A program made the translations under genes and the position numbers. This document shows, piece after piece, positions 6,339 to 17,472 of a DNA stretch of 17,472 nt (the stretch's first letter is position 1; each line of letters opens with the position of its first letter). The notes under the pieces were generated by a model. It searched no databases. It worked only from the letters and a program-made list of their open reading frames with translations, and had not been told where the DNA came from. The DNA comes from a bacterium (GTDB lineage Bacteria > Planctomycetota > J058 > JAJDCP01), in the NCBI GenBank assembly GCA_030428695.1, contig JAUIEM010000204.1:1-17472 (forward strand), written 5' to 3'.

Positions 6339-6368
6339 CCGATCCCGACTCCGATTCCGACACCGATT
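6339..6368 (-). repeat. Degenerate hexamer tract (RATCGG family), copy 2, inverted
   Basis: On the + strand the units read CCGATC, CCGACT, CCGATT, CCGACA, CCGATT, which is the reverse complement of the unit at 1092-1127 and 13112-13153. CCGCTG just upstream and CGCTTC just downstream may be decayed units. It lies in a 264-bp gap without a gene. Confidence 0.7.
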
Positions 6369-6527: not shown

Positions 6528-6992
6528 ATGCGAGGCTTGATCCGTTGCCACCGGGACCAGGTCCGGAAGCTGCTCGCCGAGGGCATGCGCAGCGCCCGCG
6601 TCCAGCGCCAGCCGCTGAGCGTGGTGCTGCTGCGCCTGGACGACTACCACCGCCTGGCCGACGAGGGCGAGCCCGCCTTCGAGCTGGCCGCCCGCCGCGT
6701 CGAGCTGGTGCTGCGCCTGCGGCTGCGGTCGGGGGATCTGACCTGTCGCTTCGCGGAGGACACGTACCTGCTGGTGCTGCCGCGCACCGACGCCCTCGCC
6801 GGCCTGCGGGTCGCCGAGCGCATCGCCGCGGACGTGCCGCGCCTGGTGCTGTGCGGCACCCACCAGGTCACCTGCTCGGCGGGGGTAGCGGGCCTGCAGG
6901 CGGGGCCCGATCCGGACGCGGTGATCATCGCCGCCGACCGCGCCCTGGCCCGGGCGCGGCGTGACGGTGTGGGGACCTGCGTGGCGGCCTGA
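6528..6992 (+). CDS. Degenerate GGDEF-domain protein
   Basis: 154 residues, with a strong purine-rich ribosome site (GGGAGGGAGGAG, 6513-6524) before the ATG at 6528. The whole protein is one GGDEF-like domain: an alpha/beta opening SVVLLRLDDYHRLADEGE at 31-48, the hairpin DLTCRFAEDTYLLVLPRTD at 70-88 where the active-site GGDEF should be, SAGVAGL at 117-123, and AADRALARARRDG at 135-147. The signature is replaced by AEDTY (76-80): only the central Asp is kept, and the Gly-Gly and catalytic Glu are missing. It therefore should not make cyclic di-GMP. It might bind a nucleotide or act as a protein-interaction or dimerisation module. No RxxD inhibitory site, sensor domain or membrane helix is present. 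It stands alone, with a 73-bp gap to the next gene. Fold assignment is fairly confident; the role is inference. Confidence 0.75.
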   Translation: MRGLIRCHRDQVRKLLAEGMRSARVQRQPLSVVLLRLDDYHRLADEGEPAFELAARRVELVLRLRLRSGDLTCRFAEDTYLLVLPRTDALAGLRVAERIAADVPRLVLCGTHQVTCSAGVAGLQAGPDPDAVIIAADRALARARRDGVGTCVAA

Positions 6993-8614: not shown

Positions 8615-8727
8615 GGTGAGCGCCTCAGTACGTTCCGTTCGTGAGATCCTCCCCAGCACCCGACGCAACGACACGCGGCCTTCTCATCGCTGTGTTCTCG
8701 GAACCATCTCGCGAGGAACGAACAAAG

Positions 8728-9651
8728 ATGCGCATCTCTCCCCTGGCCGGGGTCCTGCTCGCGGCCTGCCTGTTCGCCCTGGTCCTCCTGCCGCTCGGTT
8801 GCGGCGACCAGGCCGGCAACGGTGGCGCCACCGAGCTCCGCTTCTCCGCCATCCCCGACTCCGACAAGGAGAAGGTCACCAAACGCAGTCAGGTGATCGC
8901 CGCCTATCTCGAGAAGGAGCTCGGCATCCCGGTCAGCTTCGTCGAAGCCCCGGACTACAACGGCGCGGTCCAGGCGCTGGTGCAGAACAAGGTCGACCTG
9001 GTCTGGCTCGGTGGCGTGACCGGCGTGCTCGCCGAAGAGCGCACCGAAGGCAAGGCCCGCTTCATCTGCAACCGCGAGTCGGACCTGCAGTTCAAGAGCC
9101 ACTTCATCGCGCACAAGGACACCGGTCTCGCGCCCGTCGAGAGCCTCGCCGACATGAAGGAACAGGTCGGCGCGCTGAAGTTCACCTTCGGCAGCAAGAG
9201 CTCGACCAGCGGCCACATCATGCCGCGCTTCTTTCTGACCGACGCCGGCATGATCCCCGAGGACACCTTCGGTGAGGTCGGCTTCCAGGCCCAGGGCGGC
9301 CACGCGGCCTGCGCCAAAGCGGTCGACTCCGGCGCCGCCCAGGTCGGCGCGCTGAACTACAAGACCTTCGACAAGATGAAGGCCGCCGGCGAGCTGCCCG
9401 ACGCCGACATCATCTTCACCACCCCGCCCTACGTCGACTACTGCATGGTCGGCCACGAGCGCCTCGGCGACGAGCTGCTCGGCAAGGTCCAGGCCGCCTT
9501 CCTCAAGCTCGACCCCGCCAACGAAGAGCACAAGGCAGTGCTCGAGGCCTTCGACGCGGGCAGCGAGCGCTTCGTCGCGGCCGATCCGAAGAAGTGGGAC
9601 GGCATCCGCGCGGCCCTCAAGGACGCCCGCGACCGCGGCCTGCTCGAGTAG
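8728..9651 (+). CDS. phnD: Phosphonate/selenate-type ABC transporter substrate-binding lipoprotein
   Basis: 307 residues. The ATG at 8728 follows GAGGAA (8713-8718). A hydrophobic signal ends near Cys25 (PLGCG); Cys14 in LAAC is a better lipobox but sits inside the hydrophobic core. The mature protein has the PhnD/PtxB layout: LRFSAIPDSDKEKV (37-50), DYNGAVQALVQNKVDLVWLGG (76-96), the oxyanion-binding STSGHIMPRFFL (159-170) and GGHAACAKAVDSGAAQVGAL (190-209). The combination of WLGG, GSKSSTSG, FTTPPYVDY (230-238) and the C-terminal SERFVAADPKKWDGI matches my recollection of the PhnD-related group annotated as putative selenate binding proteins, so the ligand may be selenium oxyanion rather than phosphonate. 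It acts in the periplasm and hands ligand to the following ATPase and permease. No phosphonate-breakdown gene is nearby. The symbol is at family level only. Confidence 0.85.
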   Translation: MRISPLAGVLLAACLFALVLLPLGCGDQAGNGGATELRFSAIPDSDKEKVTKRSQVIAAYLEKELGIPVSFVEAPDYNGAVQALVQNKVDLVWLGGVTGVLAEERTEGKARFICNRESDLQFKSHFIAHKDTGLAPVESLADMKEQVGALKFTFGSKSSTSGHIMPRFFLTDAGMIPEDTFGEVGFQAQGGHAACAKAVDSGAAQVGALNYKTFDKMKAAGELPDADIIFTTPPYVDYCMVGHERLGDELLGKVQAAFLKLDPANEEHKAVLEAFDAGSERFVAADPKKWDGIRAALKDARDRGLLE

Positions 9652-9692
9652 CTCCCCCCGGCGCCTCCGGGCGCCTCCTGCCCCGAGGAACC

Positions 9693-10478
9693 ATGGCCGA
9701 GCCCGTGATCCGACTGGTCGGCGTGTCGCGTCGCTTCGGCGCGCTGACCGTGCTCGACGCGCTGCAGCTGACCGTGCCCGCCGGGCAGCGGGTCGCGCTG
9801 ATCGGTCCCTCGGGCGCGGGCAAGACCACCCTGCTGCGCGTCCTCGCCGGGGTGCTGCCGGTCAGCGCCGGGACCCTCGAGGTGTTCGGCGAGGAACCGG
9901 CCGCGCTCTCCCCCGGCCGGCTGGCCCGGCTGCGGCGGCGCATCGGCATGCTCTACCAGTCCGACAACCTGATCCCCGGCCTGCGCGTCGCCCACAACGT
10001 CAACGTCGGCCGGCTGCCGCGCTGGTCGCTGCTGCGGGCGATGTTCTCGCTGGTCGTGCCCCAGGGCCTGACGACCGTGCGCGAGGCGCTGCAACGTGTC
10101 GAGCTCGAGGAGAAGCTCTGGGCCCTGCCCGACACGCTGTCCGGAGGCCAACGTCAGCGGGTGGCGATCGCCCGGCTGCTGGTCCAGAACCCCGAGCTGC
10201 TGCTCGCCGACGAGCCGGTCAGCGGCCTCGACAACCGGCTCGGCCGCGAGGTGATCGAGCTGCTGGTCGGGATCGCGAAGGAGCGCGGCGCCACGCTGGT
10301 GACCAGCCTGCACTCCCTCGAGCTGCTCGGTGAGCGCTTCGACCGCATCCTCGCCCTGCGCGGGGGGCGGCTGTGCTGGGATGGGACCCCCGCCCAGCTC
10401 GACCGCGAGGTGCTGCGCGAGGTGTACGGGGCCGAGTACCAGGGCCTCGACCTGGCCGACTTCGCGGCCGAGCGGTGA
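9693..10478 (+). CDS. phnC: PhnC-type ABC transporter ATP-binding protein
   Basis: 261 residues. The ATG at 9693 follows GAGGA (9685-9689) and lies 41 bases after the binding-protein stop. It powers import by ATP hydrolysis at the cytoplasmic face of the permease. Motifs: Walker A GPSGAGKTT 38-46, Q-loop YQSDNL 88-93, signature LSGGQRQR 149-156, Walker B LLLADEP 169-175, D-loop SGLD 177-180 and H-loop His207. The stretch NLIPGLRVAHNVNVGRLPRW then LLRAMFSLVVPQG (92-125) is the characteristic helical insert of PhnC-like ATPases. The length is close to the family norm (about 250-280). Its stop overlaps the permease start (GTGA), indicating coupled translation. Confidence 0.9.
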   Translation: MAEPVIRLVGVSRRFGALTVLDALQLTVPAGQRVALIGPSGAGKTTLLRVLAGVLPVSAGTLEVFGEEPAALSPGRLARLRRRIGMLYQSDNLIPGLRVAHNVNVGRLPRWSLLRAMFSLVVPQGLTTVREALQRVELEEKLWALPDTLSGGQRQRVAIARLLVQNPELLLADEPVSGLDNRLGREVIELLVGIAKERGATLVTSLHSLELLGERFDRILALRGGRLCWDGTPAQLDREVLREVYGAEYQGLDLADFAAER

Positions 10479-12247
10479 GCCCCCCGCGCGAGCGCATCTG
10501 GCTGCGGCCGGTGGCGGGCGCGGCGGTGCTGCTGCTCGCCGTGTTCGCGGTCAGCGCCCTCGACTGGGACCTGCATGCGCTGGCCGACGGCGAGGCGCGG
10601 TCCGCCGCCTGGGACCGCTTCGCGCGCTTCCTCGGCTCCTTCGGCGCCCCCAACCTCGCGCCCGACTACCTCGCGACCGCCGGCCACCTCGCCCTGCAGA
10701 CCCTGTCCGTCGCCGTCCTCGGCACCCTGCTCGGAGCCCTGGGCGGCTACCTGCTCGCCCTCGGCGCCTCGCGCGCGGTCCTGGTCGGCGGGCGCCCGGC
10801 GGGGGGCGGTGTCGCGTGGCTCCGGTACCTGTTGCGGCGCGGGCTGTGCGAGCTGTTGCGGCTGCTGCTCGACGTGATGCGCGGGGTGCCGGACTTCGCC
10901 TGGGCGATCGTGATCCTCGCCCTGCCCGGGCCGGGGCCGGTCACCGGCATCCTCGCCCTGGCGGTCAGCGTCGGGGGCATCCTCGGCAAGATCTACAGTG
11001 AGCTCTGGGACAACGTCCCGACCGGCCGCTACGAGGCGATCCGCACGACCGGGGCCGGCCGGCTGGTCGTGTTCGCCTACGGCATCCAGCCGCTCGCCGC
11101 CCGCTCGATGCTGAGCTTCTCGCTGATGCGCTTCGAGTGCGCCGTGCGCAACGCCTCGGTGATCGGCGTGGTCGGCGGCGGCGGCATCGGCGCGCAGATG
11201 TTCGACGAGTTCAACTACGGGAACTTCGACAACGTCGTCACCCTGCTGCTGGTGATGCTGGTCCTGACCGCCGGCGTCGACCTGTTCGCGAACTTCGTGC
11301 GCTACCGCCTGCGCGCGGCGCCGGCCGGAGAAGGCGCGCCGTCCCCCCTGCGCGGCCCACTGCTGCGGCGGCTCGGCGGCGTCGGCGCCGGGCTCGCCCT
11401 GGTCGTCTTCTGCTGCCTCTACCTCGGCGGGATCTTCGGGGGCCGGTCGGCAGAGCGCCCGCCCTTCCAGACCGCCCTGGTCGAGCTCGAGCGGGTCGAG
11501 TGGGGCCTGCTCGGCCGCGACTTCGCGCGCCTGCTCACCCCGGACCTGCGCTGGACCCAGCCGCTGGCCAACGGCGAGACCAAGCCCGGCGCCCTCCAGG
11601 AGGCCCTGGTCGGCGCCCGCGTCCCGCTCGCCCTCGGCCTGCTCGGCACGCTGCTCGGGACCCTGATCGCGGCGCTGCTCGCCTACCCGAGCGCGATCGC
11701 CTTCCATCCCCGGGCCCCGGCCTACACCGGCGCCCGCCTCGGCCCCTTGCGGCGCGCGCTGCGCTGGCTGACGGTCCTGATCGCCCGGGGGCTCGCTCTC
11801 GGCATGCGGGCGATCCCCGAGGTCGCCTGGCTGTGGATCTTCGCGACCTTCTTCACCCTCGGCGTCGCCCCGGCGATCTGCGCGATGACCCTGCACACCG
11901 CGGGGGTGCTCGCGCGGGTGTTCACCGAGACCGTCGACGACATCCCCTACCGCGCCTACGAGCGCGACTACCTGGGCTCGCGGCCCCGGCTGTTCTTGTA
12001 CGGCGCCCTGCCGCGCAGCTTCCGCACCTGGATGTCGTACGCCTTCTTCCAGTTCGAGTCGAACGTGCGGGCGGGGGTGACCCTCGGCATCATCGGGGTC
12101 GGCGGCCTCGGGGACTCCTTCGACTGGAGCTTCAAGTACTGGTCGCTCGAGCGGGCGAGCACCTTCCTGCTCGCGATGGTGCTGCTGACGACGATCATCG
12201 ACCGCGTCTCGCGCGCGCTGCGCCTGGAGCGGGGTTCGGCGCGGTAG
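10475..12247 (+). CDS. phnE: Fused double PhnE-type ABC transporter permease
   Basis: 590 residues, starting at GTG 10475, which overlaps the ATPase stop by 4 bp. Two complete binding-protein-dependent permease domains lie in tandem. The first runs roughly from 65 to 280, with EAA-loop sequence ELWDNVPTGRYEAIRTTGAG (176-195), YGIQPL (202-207) and GVVGGGGIGAQM (231-242). The second runs roughly from 378 to 580, with ETVDDIPYRAYERDYLGS (485-502), YGALPRSF (509-516) and GIIGVGGLGDSF (538-549). Each has several hydrophobic helices. A linker with its own helix (about 302-320) and a soluble stretch (321-375) separates them. Most PhnE proteins are about 260-290 residues and work as dimers, so the fusion should make a pseudo-heterodimeric channel from one chain. 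The halves are clearly diverged, so the fusion is not recent. This completes a three-gene importer for a small oxyanion. Confidence 0.9.
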   Translation: MSPPRERIWLRPVAGAAVLLLAVFAVSALDWDLHALADGEARSAAWDRFARFLGSFGAPNLAPDYLATAGHLALQTLSVAVLGTLLGALGGYLLALGASRAVLVGGRPAGGGVAWLRYLLRRGLCELLRLLLDVMRGVPDFAWAIVILALPGPGPVTGILALAVSVGGILGKIYSELWDNVPTGRYEAIRTTGAGRLVVFAYGIQPLAARSMLSFSLMRFECAVRNASVIGVVGGGGIGAQMFDEFNYGNFDNVVTLLLVMLVLTAGVDLFANFVRYRLRAAPAGEGAPSPLRGPLLRRLGGVGAGLALVVFCCLYLGGIFGGRSAERPPFQTALVELERVEWGLLGRDFARLLTPDLRWTQPLANGETKPGALQEALVGARVPLALGLLGTLLGTLIAALLAYPSAIAFHPRAPAYTGARLGPLRRALRWLTVLIARGLALGMRAIPEVAWLWIFATFFTLGVAPAICAMTLHTAGVLARVFTETVDDIPYRAYERDYLGSRPRLFLYGALPRSFRTWMSYAFFQFESNVRAGVTLGIIGVGGLGDSFDWSFKYWSLERASTFLLAMVLLTTIIDRVSRALRLERGSAR

Positions 12248-12310: not shown

Positions 12311-13087
12311 ATGACGTTGCGTACCACCCTTCTCCTCCTGTGCTGCTGGTTCCAGAGCGGCTGCATCACCACCCGCTTCTGGGAGCCCTACCGGCCGCTC
12401 ACGGAGAGCCATGAGGGCGCCTTCGTCGACGCGGCCCTCGCCCCCGAGGACCCGTCCGGCCTGCTGCTGCGCTTCGCCTTCGCCGACAGGGACACCCAGA
12501 TCGTGCGCGTGACGCCGCCCCATCAGGCCCTCGAGCGGCTCGGGCCGGAGACGCCTATGCCTGCCTCCGCCCGGCCGCTGACCGCGAAGCCGCTCACGCT
12601 CGGCGGCTGCGAGCTTCTGCTGCAGGCCGACGGCCGGCTGGAGATCTCCGGCGCCGACTGGGAGTGGAGGCTGCCGTCGAGCGCGGGCGGCCGGCGCGCG
12701 ACGGAGCTCCGCGGCATCTGGCTCCTGCCCGCGCCGTCCGAGGCGCAGGTTCTCGTCCGGCTCGCCTTCGGTCCCGAGGAGCATCTCGTCTGCCTGCGTG
12801 ACGATGCCGCCGCGCTCGTCAGGGGGAAGGAGCCGGCCCGCGCGCCGTTTCCCCTCGCCGCCGAGCTCATCGAACGGGAGGAAGGCGCCGCCCTGCGCAT
12901 CCGCGGCGCGACGCGGGTGCTCCTTGCGCCCGAGCGTCATGATACGGGGCCCGACAGGCTGGCCCTCGCGGGCCGGATCCCCTTCTCCGTGGTGACGGTC
13001 GCTTGCGACGCGTTGACCCTGTACTTCCAGCTTCCCTACCTGATCTTCCATGCGGTCGCGCTCTCGCAGGGCGGGTCCGCGGGTTAG
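12311..13087 (+). CDS. Small lipoprotein, paralogue 1 of a five-copy family
   Basis: 258 residues. The start at ATG 12311 opens a typical lipoprotein signal (about 17 residues, Gly17-Cys18, with Gln at -3). A TTG 36 bases upstream would put charged sequence before it. There is no good ribosome site at 12311; GGGAGA lies about 17 bases too far away. After Cys18 come FWEPYRPL (24-31), a domain shared with the four copies at 14447-17472 (LTLGGCELLLQADGRLEI, WEWRLP, RIRGATRVL) and a C-terminal hydrophobic segment. It is the most divergent copy and is separated from the others by a low-GC gene and palindromic repeats. There is no Asp at +2, so outer-membrane sorting would be expected. The family is not recognised; the hydrophobic tail faintly recalls YceK-like lipoproteins, at low confidence. 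Confidence 0.8.
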   Translation: MTLRTTLLLLCCWFQSGCITTRFWEPYRPLTESHEGAFVDAALAPEDPSGLLLRFAFADRDTQIVRVTPPHQALERLGPETPMPASARPLTAKPLTLGGCELLLQADGRLEISGADWEWRLPSSAGGRRATELRGIWLLPAPSEAQVLVRLAFGPEEHLVCLRDDAAALVRGKEPARAPFPLAAELIEREEGAALRIRGATRVLLAPERHDTGPDRLALAGRIPFSVVTVACDALTLYFQLPYLIFHAVALSQGGSAG

Positions 13088-13111
13088 CGGTGGGGGTGGG
13101 CCGCCCATGTC

Positions 13112-13153
13112 AATCCCAATCGGGATCGGAATCGGAATCGGAATCGGAAGCGA
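13112..13153 (+). repeat. Degenerate hexamer tract (RATCGG), copy 3
   Basis: Units AATCCC, AATCGG, GATCGG, AATCGG, AATCGG, AATCGG, AAGCGA, starting 25 bases after the paralogue 1 stop. Four of the seven units are identical, making it the most regular of the three tracts in the window. The first unit can pair with the third (ATCCC-AATC-GGGAT), forming a small hairpin. Confidence 0.8.
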
Positions 13154-13231
13154 CCGCAAGAGCGCCGTTGCCTGTTCGTCGACCCCCCATGCCCACTGAG
13201 GACCGATAGGAACAATTGCACTGGAGCGCAT

Positions 13232-13239
13232 GGAGGGAG
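13232..13239 (+). promoter_or_regulatory. Strong ribosome-binding site that decides the start at 13242
   Basis: GGAGGGAG lies 2 bases before the ATG at 13242, with its GGAGG core (13232-13236) 5 bases away. It overlaps the earlier in-frame ATG at 13230, which has no such site, so 13242 is preferred. Confidence 0.6.
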
Positions 13240-13241
13240 CG

Positions 13242-13973
13242 ATGAGCATCCACCAACCCATTGCTTTGATGGTGATTTTAGCACTCTCGATTGTCTCCGG
13301 CTGCGCCAGTCGAATCAGCCGCTCACCAACCTTCTACGGAGATGGAGACGTCGAGAACCTCTATGGTTGCCCCAGATACGAGAAGATTCGACAGAGTGGA
13401 CGAGCATTCGCGATGTTCAGAGTGAGGATTGATGAGGTCATAGAGTCTGGGCCGGATAGGTTCTTCTTCATACATGAACCAGAAGGGAATGGGACATACT
13501 CAGCAATAGCCTTTAGAGTCGACACCAACATCGGCATACAAGAGTCAGTCAAGGCAAAGGCATGGCTTGTTCGCTGCCCAACCGATTGGATTGAAATGTG
13601 TCAGCTGTCGGAGGATGGGGGGCCTTCATTTAGCCAAAGGATGAAGTTCTTTGATGAGTGTATAAGGTCCGGATTCTCAAACAATGGAATCTTCGAACTC
13701 TCTGGAGATGTCACCACAACATGGTCAGCGGATGGTTCTCTGGTAAGCGTCTCAGTGGATCTCGTCTCTGTTGATGAAGTGACTCCATTTTATGGCTACA
13801 TGGAGACTTGGGTACGAGTGTTTGATGAGTGGGAGAAGGACGTGACACTGGGTGAAGAGATAGAGGACGCAAGGAACGCTCTGATCAACTGCCTGAATAT
13901 GACCAGTCGAGACTTGACAAGATTTAGAATCAATGCAACCTTCGACAGGAAACGCATATACAGTTGGAGGTAG
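13242..13973 (+). CDS. Low-GC hypothetical lipoprotein, probably acquired
   Basis: 243 residues from ATG 13242. The signal peptide (residues 1-20) ends in a canonical lipobox Val18-Ser19-Gly20-Cys21. The mature part is mostly soluble, Asp/Glu/Ser/Phe-rich and beta-like (AFAMFRVRIDEVIESG, WSADGSLVSVSVDLVSVDEVTPF), with several Cys residues. Two 60-base samples of the gene (13441-13500 and 13681-13740) count to 47% and 48% G+C, against 73% in a sample of a neighbouring lipoprotein gene (15001-15060). Codon endings in A and T are common here and rare elsewhere in the window. This suggests transfer from another genome. It sits between copies 1 and 2 of the lipoprotein family, bounded by a hexamer tract and palindromic repeats, but no integrase or transposase is present. 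No known family was recognised. The frame is intact, with no sign of decay. Confidence 0.75.
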   Translation: MSIHQPIALMVILALSIVSGCASRISRSPTFYGDGDVENLYGCPRYEKIRQSGRAFAMFRVRIDEVIESGPDRFFFIHEPEGNGTYSAIAFRVDTNIGIQESVKAKAWLVRCPTDWIEMCQLSEDGGPSFSQRMKFFDECIRSGFSNNGIFELSGDVTTTWSADGSLVSVSVDLVSVDEVTPFYGYMETWVRVFDEWEKDVTLGEEIEDARNALINCLNMTSRDLTRFRINATFDRKRIYSWR

Positions 13974-14002
13974 GTCACTCCTCGAATGCCCGCCAGGCAA
14001 CG

Positions 14003-14051
14003 CCGTCTTGCGGCTAAACCCTCCGGGTCGCCCGCGGCGACGGCAAGACGG
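14003..14051 (+). repeat. Nested inverted repeat (REP-like)
   Basis: The outer arms CCGTCTTGC (14003-14011) and GCAAGACGG (14043-14051) pair over 9 bases. Inside, GTCGCC (14027-14032) and GGCGAC (14036-14041) pair around CGC. It starts 30 bases after the low-GC gene stop, so it could also act as that transcript's 3' hairpin. Confidence 0.55.
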
Positions 14052-14067
14052 TTCAATCCGAAACGAA

Positions 14068-14201
14068 CTGACCTCAGCATGAGTCTTGTCCCGGCTCGGC
14101 GGGCGGGGGTAAACCCCGCCCCTACCCCCGGAAAAGCGCACACCGAGGTAGGGGAGGGGTTTACCCCCTCCCGTCGTACTTCGGGAACTGACAGAGGTCA
14201 G
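14068..14201 (+). repeat. Large imperfect palindrome, REP/MITE-like element
   Basis: The outer arms CTGACCTC (14068-14075) and GAGGTCAG (14194-14201) are perfect inverted copies. The inner arms 14101-14131 and 14143-14172 are about 30 bases each and pair with only a few mismatches around GGGGGTAAACCCC / GGGGTTTACCCCC, closing on an A-rich loop (14132-14142). The core resembles extragenic palindromes seen widely as GTAGGGG-GGGTTTACCCC in bacterial genomes (from memory). It has no coding potential. Confidence 0.65.
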
Positions 14202-14446
14202 CAGGATCTGCGCCCTCCGCAGCCTCGTGAGACCGTCCGACACTCCGTGTGCGCACGCTGCACAGAGATTGTCCGGGACCCCCGCAGCACCCGTGGCGGC
14301 GACCAGGCTCAGCCCTGTCGTCGCGGTGCCCGGAACACCAGCGCGGAGGCGGCGCCGGGACCAGCCGATGAGCCACCAGCCCAGCGAAGGCGTCACCGGC
14401 GCGCAGTTTGCGTACCAATGAAAGAGCTCTCCAACTGCCGAAGACC

Positions 14447-15184
14447 ATGACGCGCCTGCTCCTGCTCCTATGCCTGACCCCGACCGGCTGCATGACCGAC
14501 GGCCTGTGGAGCAGCTACCGCCCTGTGGAAGACACCTACCGCGGCGTGTACCTGCAGGCAGCCCTCGATCCCCATTCCGGCCCGCCCCGGCTGCTCCTGC
14601 GCTGCGCCTTCCCGGGCAGCAGCGAGAGCGCCGTCATCGCCGTCACGCCGCCCGCCCAGAAGCTCGAGATCCTCGCCCCCCACGCGCTCGAGAATCCGAC
14701 GCCCCTCCTGCCCGGGGAGCCGGTGACGCTCGGGGGCTTCCGCCTGCTGCTGAGGGAGGACGGCCCGCTAGAGATCGAGGGCGCCGTCTGGGAGTGGATG
14801 TTGCCGGAGGAGACCGACGGGACGCGCGCGAGCGGGATGGACGAGATCGCGACCCTCGACGGCCACTCCACGGTGCTGGCCAGGCTCTGGTACGGAACGA
14901 GCCGGCGCTTCGTGTGGCTGAGCGGCAACCGCACCTGGGTCGACGATCTCCCGGACGCGTCGCGGGCCCCGTTCCGCCTGGAAGCGAACCTGCGCGAACG
15001 CGGCTCGCACAGCACTCTGGAGATCGCAGGCGCGACCCGCATCCTCGACCGGCCGCTCCGGCGCACCCTCCGCCCGGACCACCCGGAAGCCGCCCGGCGC
15101 GGCGCGCTCACCCTGTTCGCCGCCGCGCTCGATGCCGCGACGTTGCCGTTCCAGCTTCCGTTCTTGATCCTCTTCGAACCTTGA
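14447..15184 (+). CDS. Small lipoprotein, paralogue 2
   Basis: 245 residues from ATG 14447, aligned by homology with the starts of copies 3-5; an upstream in-frame ATG (14408) would place charged residues before the signal. The signal is MTRLLLLLCLTPTG with Cys15; Pro at -3 is atypical for a lipobox. Shared blocks follow: LWSSYRPVEDT, QAALDP, GPPRLLLRCAFPG, PPAQKLEIL, GEPVTLGGFRLLLREDGPLE, WEWMLPEETDGTRASG, RLWYGTSRRFVWL and LEIAGATRILDRPLR. The hydrophobic end is LDAATLPFQLPFLILF. The first 230 bases align without gaps to copy 3 at a constant offset of 749. This is the first gene of a tight run: 11 bases to copy 3. The ribosome site is weak here, unlike in copies 3-5. Function unknown; expected to be anchored to the outer membrane on the periplasmic side. 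Confidence 0.85.
   Translation: MTRLLLLLCLTPTGCMTDGLWSSYRPVEDTYRGVYLQAALDPHSGPPRLLLRCAFPGSSESAVIAVTPPAQKLEILAPHALENPTPLLPGEPVTLGGFRLLLREDGPLEIEGAVWEWMLPEETDGTRASGMDEIATLDGHSTVLARLWYGTSRRFVWLSGNRTWVDDLPDASRAPFRLEANLRERGSHSTLEIAGATRILDRPLRRTLRPDHPEAARRGALTLFAAALDAATLPFQLPFLILFEP
14579..14676 (+). repeat. 98-bp near-identical patch, copy in lipoprotein 2 (partner 15328-15425)
   Basis: Compared by eye with 15328-15425, only 4 of 98 bases differ, including at third codon positions, while the later parts of the two genes differ at many sites and by insertions. The patch encodes the GPPRLLLRCAFPG to KLEIL region. Confidence 0.7.
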
Positions 15185-15195
15185 GGCGAGAGACG

Positions 15196-16029
15196 ATGCC
15201 GCGCCTGCTCCTGCTCCTGTGCCTGACCCCGACCGGCTGCATGACCGGCCTCCTGTGGAGCACCTACCGCCCGCTCGCGGACACCCAGCGCGGCGCGTAT
15301 CTGCAGGCCGCCATCGATCCTCGCCCCGGCCCGCCCCGGCTGCTCCTGCGCTGCGCCTTCCCGGGCAGCGGGGAGAGCGCCGTCATCGCCGTCACGCCGC
15401 CCGACCAGGAGCTCGAGATCCTCGCGGACCAGGCGCTCGTCGATCCTGTGCCGCTTGTGGCCGGGGAACCGGCGACGGTCGGGGGCTTCCACCTGTTCCT
15501 GCGGGACGAGGGCCCGCTCGAGATCGAGGGGGCCATCTGGGAGTGGAGGTTGCCAGAGCAGAAGGACGGGACGCGCGCCCGCAGCGTGCGCGAGATCGCG
15601 CTGGTGCGGGACGATGACGAGCGCCTCATCGTGTCGCTCGATCTCTGGTACGGGGAAGGAACGCGCCGCTACGTCAAGCTGCGCGGCACCCGCGCAGTGT
15701 TCGACGACAACCCTGCCTGGGACCGCGGGAGCTTTCCCCTCGTGGCGCAGCTGCGGGAGCGCGCCGCGCACAGGGTTCTGGAGATCGAGGGGGCGACACG
15801 CGTCCTCGACCGGCCGCGGCGCCAGACCTTGACCACGGATCACGCGAAGGCCGCGTGGCGCGGCGCGGTCACGCCCTGGTCCGTCGCGGCGGACGTCGCG
15901 ACGCTGCCCGTCCAGATCCCGCTCTGGATCTCTTTCGCCATCTCCCCGCCGCAGATTCCGTCACGCGCGGCGCGGGCCGAGGTTGCGCCGCGGCGACGGC
16001 CGATGCCCGCCCAGCCTGAAGAGGAGTGA
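15196..16029 (+). CDS. Small lipoprotein, paralogue 3, with C-terminal extension
   Basis: 277 residues, the longest complete copy. The ATG at 15196 is preceded by GAGGCGAGAG, which overlaps the previous stop. Signal to Cys15 (same PTGC box as copy 2). Family blocks: YRPLADT 24-30, GPPRLLLRCAFPGSGESAV 45-63, QELEIL 71-76, GEPATVGGFHLFLRDEGPLE 90-109, WEWRLP 115-120, DGTRARS 124-130, LDLWYGEGTRRYVKLRG 148-164, VLEIEGATRVLDRP 194-207. The hydrophobic segment is ADVATLPVQIPLWISF 232-247. After it, a tail of about 30 residues rich in Arg, Ala, Pro and Glu is not shared with the others and may be newly acquired 3' sequence. It is 2 bases from copy 4, so it is co-translated. No enzyme motif was recognised. 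Confidence 0.85.
   Translation: MPRLLLLLCLTPTGCMTGLLWSTYRPLADTQRGAYLQAAIDPRPGPPRLLLRCAFPGSGESAVIAVTPPDQELEILADQALVDPVPLVAGEPATVGGFHLFLRDEGPLEIEGAIWEWRLPEQKDGTRARSVREIALVRDDDERLIVSLDLWYGEGTRRYVKLRGTRAVFDDNPAWDRGSFPLVAQLRERAAHRVLEIEGATRVLDRPRRQTLTTDHAKAAWRGAVTPWSVAADVATLPVQIPLWISFAISPPQIPSRAARAEVAPRRRPMPAQPEEE
15328..15425 (+). repeat. 98-bp near-identical patch, copy in lipoprotein 3 (partner 14579-14676)
   Basis: Direct-repeat partner of 14579-14676 at an offset of 749 bases. The four differences are two in the codon pair after GGGCAGC and two around the Gln codon before CTCGAGATC. Confidence 0.7.
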
Positions 16030-16031
16030 CG

Positions 16032-16838
16032 ATGCCGCGCCTGCTCCTGATCCTGTGCCTGACCCAGACCGGCTGCATGACAGCGTTGTTGTGGCGTACG
16101 TACCATCCGATCGAGGAGACCAGCGACGCCGACTTCCTCGAAGCCGCCCTGTCCCTCGAGCCCGGGCCGCCGCGCCTGCTGCTGCGCTGCGCCTTCACCG
16201 CCGGGGACAGCGCGGTGCTCGCGCTGACCCCACCGGCCCAGGAGATCGAGGTGCGCCCGGGGCGGCCGCTCGTCGATGGGCGTCCCCTGGTCGCCGGCGA
16301 GCCGATCACGCTCGGCGGCTTCGAGCTGCTGCTGCGCGAGGACGGGCGCCTCGAGGTCGGGGGAGCGCAGTGGGAGTGGGCGCTGCCCGCCCAGGACGAC
16401 GGGACCCGCGCCAGCAGCCTGCGCCACATCTGGCTCATCGCGGACATCGACGAGACCCCGACCGTGCTCGCCGAGCTCTGGTACGGGGACACCGGCAGCC
16501 GCTACGTACAGCTGCGCGGCACGGAGTCCCGCTTCCCGCGGAATCCCGACTGGGTGCGCGAGCCCTTCCCGCTCACGGCCACGGTGGCCGACCGCGGCGA
16601 CCACGCCGCGCTCGTTGTCGAGGGCGCGACGCGCATCCTCGACCGCCCGGTGCGCGATCGTTCGTTGCCGAACCCCGCGGGGATCGCGCCGCGCATCCCC
16701 TGCACGCCCTTCGCCGTCGCGCTCGACATCGCGACCGCGCCGCTCCAGCTCCCGGTGGCGATCCTGTTCACCCTCTATCCGATCCGGATCTTCGTCGACA
16801 GCCCCCGGGTCCCGGCCCGGGACCCGGTCGGGGAGTGA
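16032..16838 (+). CDS. Small lipoprotein, paralogue 4
   Basis: 268 residues. ATG 16032 follows GAGGAG (16021-16026). A GTG at 16026 in the same frame lies inside that ribosome site and is rejected. Signal to Cys15 with Gln at -3 (TQTGC). Blocks: YHPIEET 24-30, GPPRLLLRCAF 45-55, PPAQEIEV 67-74, GEPITLGGFELLLREDGRLE 89-108, WEWALP 114-119, DGTRASS 123-129, LAELWYGDTGSRYVQLRG 146-163, EGATRILDRPVR 197-208, and the hydrophobic stretch FAVALDIATAPLQLPVAILF 227-246. The stop at 16836-16838 overlaps a possible ATG for copy 5. The pattern of conserved Trp, Gly and Leu suggests one beta-rich domain per protein plus a C-terminal amphipathic or membrane-associated helix. Confidence 0.85.
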   Translation: MPRLLLILCLTQTGCMTALLWRTYHPIEETSDADFLEAALSLEPGPPRLLLRCAFTAGDSAVLALTPPAQEIEVRPGRPLVDGRPLVAGEPITLGGFELLLREDGRLEVGGAQWEWALPAQDDGTRASSLRHIWLIADIDETPTVLAELWYGDTGSRYVQLRGTESRFPRNPDWVREPFPLTATVADRGDHAALVVEGATRILDRPVRDRSLPNPAGIAPRIPCTPFAVALDIATAPLQLPVAILFTLYPIRIFVDSPRVPARDPVGE

Positions 16839-16840
16839 TG

Positions 16841-17472
16841 ATGCGACGCCTGCTCCTGTTCCTCCTGTGCTTGACCCAGACCGGCTGCATTAGCGGCCTG
16901 CTCTGGAGCGCCTACAGACCTGTCGAGGAAGACGAGGGCTCCTCCTACCTCGAGGCGGCCCTCGACCCTTCTCCCGGCCCGCCCCGGCTCCTGGTCGCCT
17001 GCGTCTTCACCGGCGGAGAGAGCGCGGTGGTCGCCCTCACTCCGCCCTACCAGAAGCTCGAGATCCTCCCGCCGACGGCGCTCGTCGACCCGGTGCCGCT
17101 CGCTCCCGAGGAGCCGGTCACCCTCGGCGACTTCCAGCTGCTCTTGCGCAGCACCGGCCGCCTGGAGGTGTCCGGCGTCGCCTGGGAGTGGCGGCTGCCC
17201 GAGGAAGAAGACGGGACCCGCGCCAGCGGCGTGCGCGACCTCGGGCTGGGGTGGAGCTTCCGCGGCGAGGAGACCGCCGTGCTCGCCGAGCTCTGGTACG
17301 GCGCCGGACACAGCCGCTATGTGCGCATCGCCGACTCCTTGGTGCGTTTCGACACGCAGCCGACGTCGGTGCCGAAGCCCTCTCTGCTCGTCGCCCGGGT
17401 GCGCGACCGCGGGGCCCACGCGACGCTGGAGATCGAGGGCGCGACGCGGATCCTCGCCCGGCCGGTGCGGAC
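16841..17472 (+). CDS. Small lipoprotein, paralogue 5 (3' end outside window)
   Basis: The frame is open from ATG 16841 to the last base, about 210 codons, with no stop in the window. A second in-frame ATG at 16838 overlaps the previous stop but lies too close to GGGGAG (16830-16835), so 16841 is preferred. Signal MRRLLLFLLCLTQTG with Cys16. The family blocks are all present: LLWSAYRPVEED, YLEAALDP, GPPRLLVACVFTGGESAVVALTPP split across positions 46-69, QKLEIL, EPVTLGDFQLLLRSTGRLE, WEWRLPEEEDGTRASG, VLAELWYG, and LEIEGATRILARPVR at the window edge. A small insertion (LGLGWSFRGEE) is unique to this copy. By comparison with copies 2-4, about 35-65 residues, including the hydrophobic tail, should follow. 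Confidence 0.85.
   Translation, partial: MRRLLLFLLCLTQTGCISGLLWSAYRPVEEDEGSSYLEAALDPSPGPPRLLVACVFTGGESAVVALTPPYQKLEILPPTALVDPVPLAPEEPVTLGDFQLLLRSTGRLEVSGVAWEWRLPEEEDGTRASGVRDLGLGWSFRGEETAVLAELWYGAGHSRYVRIADSLVRFDTQPTSVPKPSLLVARVRDRGAHATLEIEGATRILARPVR

What the first reader, a model, noticed from the sequence alone, without database searches (positions are those of the whole stretch)
12311..17472. Tandem array of at least five paralogous lipoproteins of an unrecognised family
Five proteins share the same order of blocks: short signal to Cys, LW-x-x-Y-x-P, GPPRLLL-x-C-x-F, TPP-x-x-x-LEI, GEP-TLGGF-x-LLL, WEW-x-LP, DGTRAS, LWYG, EGATR-L-x-RP and a hydrophobic C-terminal segment. I cannot match this to a named family. 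Copies 2-5 are spaced by 2-11 bases, so they are made together, and the array continues past the window. Local expansion of surface or periplasmic lipoproteins often points to diversification toward ligands, phage or neighbours, or to subunits of one complex. That role is inference.
Basis: partly seen in the sequence, partly recalled or inferred. Interest (0 to 1): 0.7.

Follow-up and report, generated by a model that had tools for sequence, protein, structure and literature searches.

The report
Tandem array of orphan lipoprotein-like genes
A stretch of bacterial DNA carries at least five related copies of a probable membrane-anchored protein close together, of a family that could not be matched to a named one; what the proteins do is not known.

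Summary
The array is real: copies at 12311-13087, 14447-15184, 15196-16029, 16032-16838 and 16841 to the window end (cut), 38-64% identical, with pN below pS in 10 of 10 pairs. Corrections: copy 1 is a divergent outlier lacking several quoted motifs; a foreign-looking 49% GC lipoprotein-like gene (13230-13973) separates it from copies 2-5; and the candidate lipobox has P or Q at -3 in 6 of 6 members, so "lipoprotein" is likely, not shown.

No convincing match came from Pfam, NCBIfam, PADLOC, PHROGs or the PDB. Three searches of a 5.8-billion-protein set found one outside relative, P0005, 53% identical to copy 1. Two AlphaFold models from overlapping alignments agree on a beta-rich domain plus C-terminal helices, without a significant fold match. 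No H, S, K or N is invariant; one D is, in the C-terminal segment.

Best reading: an operon of envelope-anchored binding or structural modules that diverged after duplication (confidence 0.35); neutral duplication is nearly as likely. A new orphan family of a familiar kind; modest interest without taxon, genome context or function.

The parts
12311..13087 (+). Copy 1 (P0004, 258 aa), divergent member; nearest relative is P0005 outside the window (53%)
13230..13973 (+). Unrelated lipoprotein-like ORF (247 aa) with a canonical lipobox (VSGC), 49% GC against 71% for the window; lies between copies 1 and 2
   Evidence: best family rows are weak: Pfam E 0.22, NCBIfam E 0.14 and 0.17, PHROGs E 0.29, PADLOC none
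14097..14176 (.). Inverted repeat, two 30-base arms 90% complementary with 20 bases between, in the gap before copy 2
14447..15184 (+). Copy 2 (P0003, 245 aa)
15196..16029 (+). Copy 3 (P0001, 277 aa); 64% to copy 2, with a 44-nt identical run and a run of 29 identical same-residue codons
16032..16838 (+). Copy 4 (P0002, 268 aa); GTG at 16026 is an alternative start
16841..17472 (+). Copy 5, cut by the window end after 210 residues; ATG at 16838 is an alternative start
8641..12247 (+). Upstream phosphonate-type ABC transporter: PhnD-like binding protein, PhnC-like ATPase, PhnE-like permease (two permease stretches in one frame), ending 63 bases before copy 1
   Evidence: Pfam PF12974, PF00005, PF00528; whether it is transcribed with copy 1 is not known

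Best explanation
Shown: a small paralogous family expanded in tandem, with copies 2-5 spaced like one operon. Inferred: each protein is exported and held at the envelope by the Cys after the short signal and by the moderately hydrophobic C-terminal segment. The beta-rich domain between them is a binding or structural module rather than an enzyme. Duplication supplied several versions of one scaffold that are present together, with the conserved core (WxxYxP, PP, WEWxLP, GATR) holding the fold and the faster stretches giving each copy its own partner, as a mixed oligomer or a small ligand repertoire.
For: Spacing of 11, 2 and 2 bases between copies 2-5, with AG-rich stretches before copies 3-5. 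The 46 columns invariant in six members contain no H, D, S, K or N, and the two invariant Cys are in the signal and at the lipobox; among the five complete members one D (D229 of copy 2, in the C-terminal segment, with T232 and Q236) is also invariant, so no usual catalytic or metal site is evident in the beta domain. Two AlphaFold runs on different copies (mean pLDDT 74.4, pTM 0.63; 76.8, 0.63) give 17 and 14 strands followed by C-terminal helices; 10-residue block means in the beta domain are 65-93 and 74-94. Conservation is uneven: identity is 0.14 at model residues 121-130 and 0.22-0.31 at 141-160, against 0.61-0.71 at 31-40, 91-110 and 181-190. pN is below pS in 10 of 10 pairs, so the copies look kept as proteins.
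Against: No ligand, partner, expression or localisation data. Lipobox not canonical. The two models share most of their 5-6 input sequences, so they are not independent; only the best of five models is quoted, and others fell to mean pLDDT 52 and 55; the C-terminal helices are mostly under pLDDT 66. The fast stretches are not only loops: 141-150 is a predicted strand. Neutral divergence also gives such a pattern, and strands average 0.52 identity against 0.43 for loops, a small contrast. dS is limited by GC3 above 0.9: independent codons for one residue are expected to match 57% of the time and 55-77% do, so dN/dS cannot be read as diversifying selection.
Confidence: 0.35

Rival explanations
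1. Duplication with little or no functional divergence: the copies raise dosage or drift, and the array will shrink again.
For: Copies 2 and 3 are the closest pair (64%) and share a 29-codon identical run, reached by 6 of 1000 shuffles (one of 10 pairs tested, so weak after correction), which suggests homogenisation. The family is known almost only from this contig.
Against: The other nine pairs differ at 42-62% of residues while frames and core motifs stay intact in the four complete copies; pN is below pS in all pairs.
Confidence: 0.28
2. An immunity-type array: envelope lipoproteins that neutralise toxins acting in the periplasm or on membranes, multiplied against several toxins.
For: Duplicated immunity genes exist in known systems: in Aeromonas hydrophila none to three DUF2931 immunity genes follow Tle-type effector genes, and some DUF2931 members are annotated as outer-membrane lipoproteins (PMC7245790, passages read). 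A foreign-looking gene lies between copies 1 and 2.
Against: No toxin, secretion or defence gene was recognised among the ten neighbour proteins scanned with Pfam, and PADLOC gave nothing for the four complete copies, P0005 or the 13230 ORF. No DUF2931 row for any of five copies.
Confidence: 0.12
3. Exported or membrane-associated proteins that are not lipidated: the Cys is not used by the lipidation enzyme, and the C-terminal helix is the anchor.
For: P or Q at position -3 in 6 of 6 proteins; neither lipobox pattern fits at that Cys. Short signal (14-22 residues before the Cys).
Against: Gly-Cys is invariant in 6 of 6. Lipobox patterns were derived mostly from other phyla (recalled).
Confidence: 0.15
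4. Accessory proteins of the phosphonate-type ABC transporter, from which the array grew.
For: The permease frame ends 63 bases before copy 1 on the same strand; Pfam assignments.
Against: Copies 2-5 lie beyond a separate gene and a 1.4 kb gap; the neighbourhood of P0005 could not be read, so linkage is untested; no substrate-binding domain is recognised in the copies.
Confidence: 0.1

Closest known systems
Tandem lipoproteins of Staphylococcus aureus (Lpl cluster; abstract and outline of PMC4470592 seen)
   Same: Tandem cluster of paralogous lipoprotein genes
   Different: No row for that family in the Pfam and NCBIfam scans; no canonical lipobox here; beta domain plus C-terminal helices predicted here
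DUF2931 / Tli immunity proteins of type VI lipase effectors (passages of PMC7245790)
   Same: Small envelope proteins that can occur as duplicated neighbours
   Different: No DUF2931 row; no effector gene seen among the neighbours scanned; the side beyond 17472 is unknown
YceK/YidQ family lipoproteins (the likeness of the C-terminal P-x-x-x-x-x-D-x-x-T-x-P-x-Q segment is recalled, not tested residue by residue)
   Same: A Cys after a short signal and a hydrophobic C-terminal segment with conserved D
   Different: No YceK row for the array copies, nor for C-terminal pieces of copies 1-4 searched alone
Beta-propeller blades (weak structural rows only)
   Same: Antiparallel meanders; many fold-search rows are proteins I know as propellers (DDB1, TolB, Neu2, GH43, PHL lectin; recalled)

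Membership tests
Canonical Sec/Lgt lipoprotein | Lipobox [LVI][ASTVI][GAS]C or PROSITE-like pattern (patterns recalled) | tested here: not met
   0 of 5 copies and not P0005 at the candidate Cys; -3 is P or Q. A strict match in copy 5 at residue 54 lies inside the mature domain
Canonical Sec/Lgt lipoprotein | Positively charged start, hydrophobic stretch, then G/S/A-Cys | tested here: met
   All six members, read from the sequence
Canonical Sec/Lgt lipoprotein | Acylated N-terminal Cys | not testable with these tools
   Needs mass spectrometry or labelling
S. aureus tandem lipoproteins (Lpl) | Match to the family profile in Pfam or NCBIfam | tested here: not met
   No such family listed for any of five copies
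DUF2931 / Tli immunity proteins | Pfam profile match | tested here: not met
   No row at E up to 10 for 5 of 5 copies; HMMER's filters drop most matches above about 0.1
DUF2931 / Tli immunity proteins | Neighbouring lipase effector gene | tested here: inconclusive
   None among the ten neighbour proteins scanned; sequence past 17472 not available
YceK/YidQ lipoproteins | Pfam or NCBIfam profile match | tested here: not met
   No row for the five copies, for C-terminal pieces of copies 1-4, for the P0005 piece (Pfam) or P0005 whole (NCBIfam); the unrelated 13230 ORF scores 12.5 bits against a cut-off of 123
Beta-propeller | Closed ring of four-stranded blades | tested here: inconclusive
   Weak alignments of one or two blades; no coordinates available to check closure

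The most novel reading that the evidence does not exclude
The copies are versions of one new small beta-domain, possibly a closed ring of four meanders, that are made together and assemble as a mixed envelope-anchored complex whose variable stretches form different binding faces: a lineage-specific surface system with its own fold.
Probability: 0.1. Interest if true: 0.55.

Novelty: new member of a known kind. Interest (0 to 1): 0.33.

Why it matters
It adds a protein family that the libraries searched do not hold and for which one relative outside the window was found in a set of 5.8 billion proteins, with a fairly confident beta core. If related genomes become readable, copy number and orthologous groups would show whether such arrays are functional repertoires or passing duplications. 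By itself it settles no open question.

Tried and rejected
Named family: rejected after Pfam, NCBIfam, PADLOC, PHROGs (the last two without copy 5) and PDB sequences (7, copy 2 alone). Weak rows seen and taken as chance, all under their curated cut-offs: a metallo-beta-lactamase model for copy 4 (E 0.049, 13 bits against 640), an Rz1-like LysC lysis model for one of five copies (E 0.18; cut-off not shown there), GhoT/OrtT for the C-terminal pieces of copies 2 and 4 (E 0.065 and 0.097), an aminotransferase model for the piece of copy 3 (E 0.16).

Internal repeat within the protein: best ungapped diagonal not significant (p 0.087 of 300 shuffles). More family remnants in the window: tblastn with P0001-P0005 found the five copies; other rows had E 0.17 or worse. 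Plasmids: none, copy 3. Phages: three Microbacterium phage rows at E 0.5-0.7, copy 4, taken as chance. Viral contigs: 30 pattern matches, no relative. Genome contigs: 41 pattern matches, no relative; neither pattern matches P0005, so this negative is weak. Whole genomes: 0 of 201 of the phylum of G003, chosen only because a handle existed, so it shows little. In some searches only the 7997 and 7998 candidates sharing most words were scored; more distant relatives may exist.

Taxon: not established. The HisRS scan gave nine loci at 36-48% identity from unlike groups; the kinase against plasmids matched 838 records of mixed organisms. A Planctomycetota-like look of the kinase and FGE genes is a recalled impression. 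Promoter scan: one site, inside copy 4 (0.2 expected); terminators: two, 1.7 expected. No tRNA, no Rfam match. Paper searches listed no paper that I recognised as on this family, but an unnamed family can hardly be found that way.

Full report
Observation. The window holds five homologous frames on the + strand: 12311-13087, 14447-15184, 15196-16029, 16032-16838 and 16841 to the window end. Protein identities are 64% (copies 2-3), 54-58% (the other five pairs among 2-5) and 38-41% (copy 1 with the rest), over 204-261 aligned residues. tblastn E-values between copies run from 1.6e-27 to 4e-88. Third-position GC is 0.91-0.95, as in the five neighbouring genes measured, and pN is below pS in 10 of 10 pairs.

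Corrections. Several quoted motif strings hold only for copies 2-5. Copies 2-5 have gaps of 11, 2 and 2 bases and AG-rich stretches before copies 3-5, but copy 1 is 1359 bases upstream. Between them lies an unrelated ORF, 13230-13973, with 49% GC against 71% for the window and its own canonical lipobox, without a convincing family match, and then an inverted repeat at 14097-14176. The candidate Cys of the array proteins is preceded by P-T-G, Q-T-G, Q-S-G or Q-A-G: in 6 of 6 members the -3 residue is P or Q, so neither the strict nor the PROSITE-like lipobox pattern fits there. Lipidation is likely from the invariant Gly-Cys but is not shown.

Relatives. Pfam, NCBIfam, PADLOC, PHROGs and PDB sequences gave nothing convincing for the copies scanned; the weak rows are told under Tried and rejected. 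Three searches of the 5.8-billion-protein set returned the four complete window copies; the two core-based ones (21, 38, with E up to 10) also returned one outside protein, P0005 (267 aa, 2 contigs, longest 6996). Copy 1 (P0004) is reported on 2 contigs, the others on one. Copy 5, being cut, is not in that set. P0005 is 53% identical to copy 1 and 41-44% to copies 2-5. The identities suggest that copy 1 and P0005 form one branch and copies 2-5 a later local burst; no tree was built. Copies 2 and 3 share a 44-nt identical run and 29 consecutive identical same-residue codons, reached by 6 of 1000 shuffles (one of 10 pairs tested): a possible conversion tract.

Mechanism. The 46 columns invariant in six members contain no H, D, S, K or N, and no Cys beyond the lipobox one and one in the signal. 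Among the five complete members a D, with a T and a Q, is also invariant in the C-terminal hydrophobic segment (D229, T232, Q236 of copy 2): a motif that copy 5 is cut too early to show, and that may serve the membrane part. So a usual catalytic or metal site is not evident in the beta domain. The most likely role is a binding or structural module held at the envelope, in several versions made together. Inferred steps: export, anchoring, co-expression, and different partners for each copy. The variable stretches (model residues 121-130 and 141-160, identity 0.14-0.31) against constant ones (0.61-0.71) are in keeping with this, but the strand-loop contrast is small and one variable stretch is a predicted strand. 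Synonymous sites are near the match expected for independent codons in most pairs (57% expected, 55-77% seen), so no claim of diversifying selection is made.

Rivals. Neutral or dosage duplication remains nearly as likely. An immunity array has literature parallels, DUF2931 proteins after Tle effectors in Aeromonas (PMC7245790, passages), but no toxin neighbour among the ten proteins scanned and no profile match here. A link to the phosphonate-type transporter upstream rests on a 63-base gap alone.

Novelty. Tandem paralogous lipoproteins are a known kind, for example S. aureus Lpl (PMC4470592, abstract and outline seen), and large numbers of unnamed families in uncultured taxa are on record (PMC10849945, start of abstract in a search listing). 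The family itself is absent from the libraries used. The limits are the lack of a genome, an unknown taxon, an array cut by the window end, and a genome-contig scan whose patterns would have missed P0005.

Noticed in passing
1094-1115, 6339-6366, 13114-13153: Three tracts of a TCGGAA-type hexamer repeat (7 matches with up to 3 mismatches, none in 200 shuffles), just after the 376-1083 gene, in the gap between the epimerase and GGDEF-like genes, and just after copy 1: possibly an intergenic element family of this genome.
   Followed up: partly
13230-13973: Low-GC (49%) lipoprotein-like gene in a 71% GC window, between copies 1 and 2: possibly acquired horizontally.
   Followed up: partly
6528-6992: GGDEF-family protein (Pfam E 1e-12) that reads RFAED where the GGDEF signature is expected (recalled), so probably catalytically inactive.
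   Followed up: no
1-327: Frame end with 18 consecutive G-X-Y triplets, collagen-like, cut by the window start.
   Followed up: no
10373-12247: PhnE-like permease frame with two permease stretches in one protein, apparently a fused pair.
   Followed up: no
14447-16029: 44-nt identical run and 29 identical same-residue codons between copies 2 and 3: possible gene conversion.
   Followed up: partly
C-terminal segments of copies 1-4 and of P0005: Conserved D-x-x-T-x-x-x-Q in the hydrophobic C-terminal segment in 5 of 5 complete members; recalls the C-terminal motif of YceK-like lipoproteins, but no profile match.
   Followed up: partly
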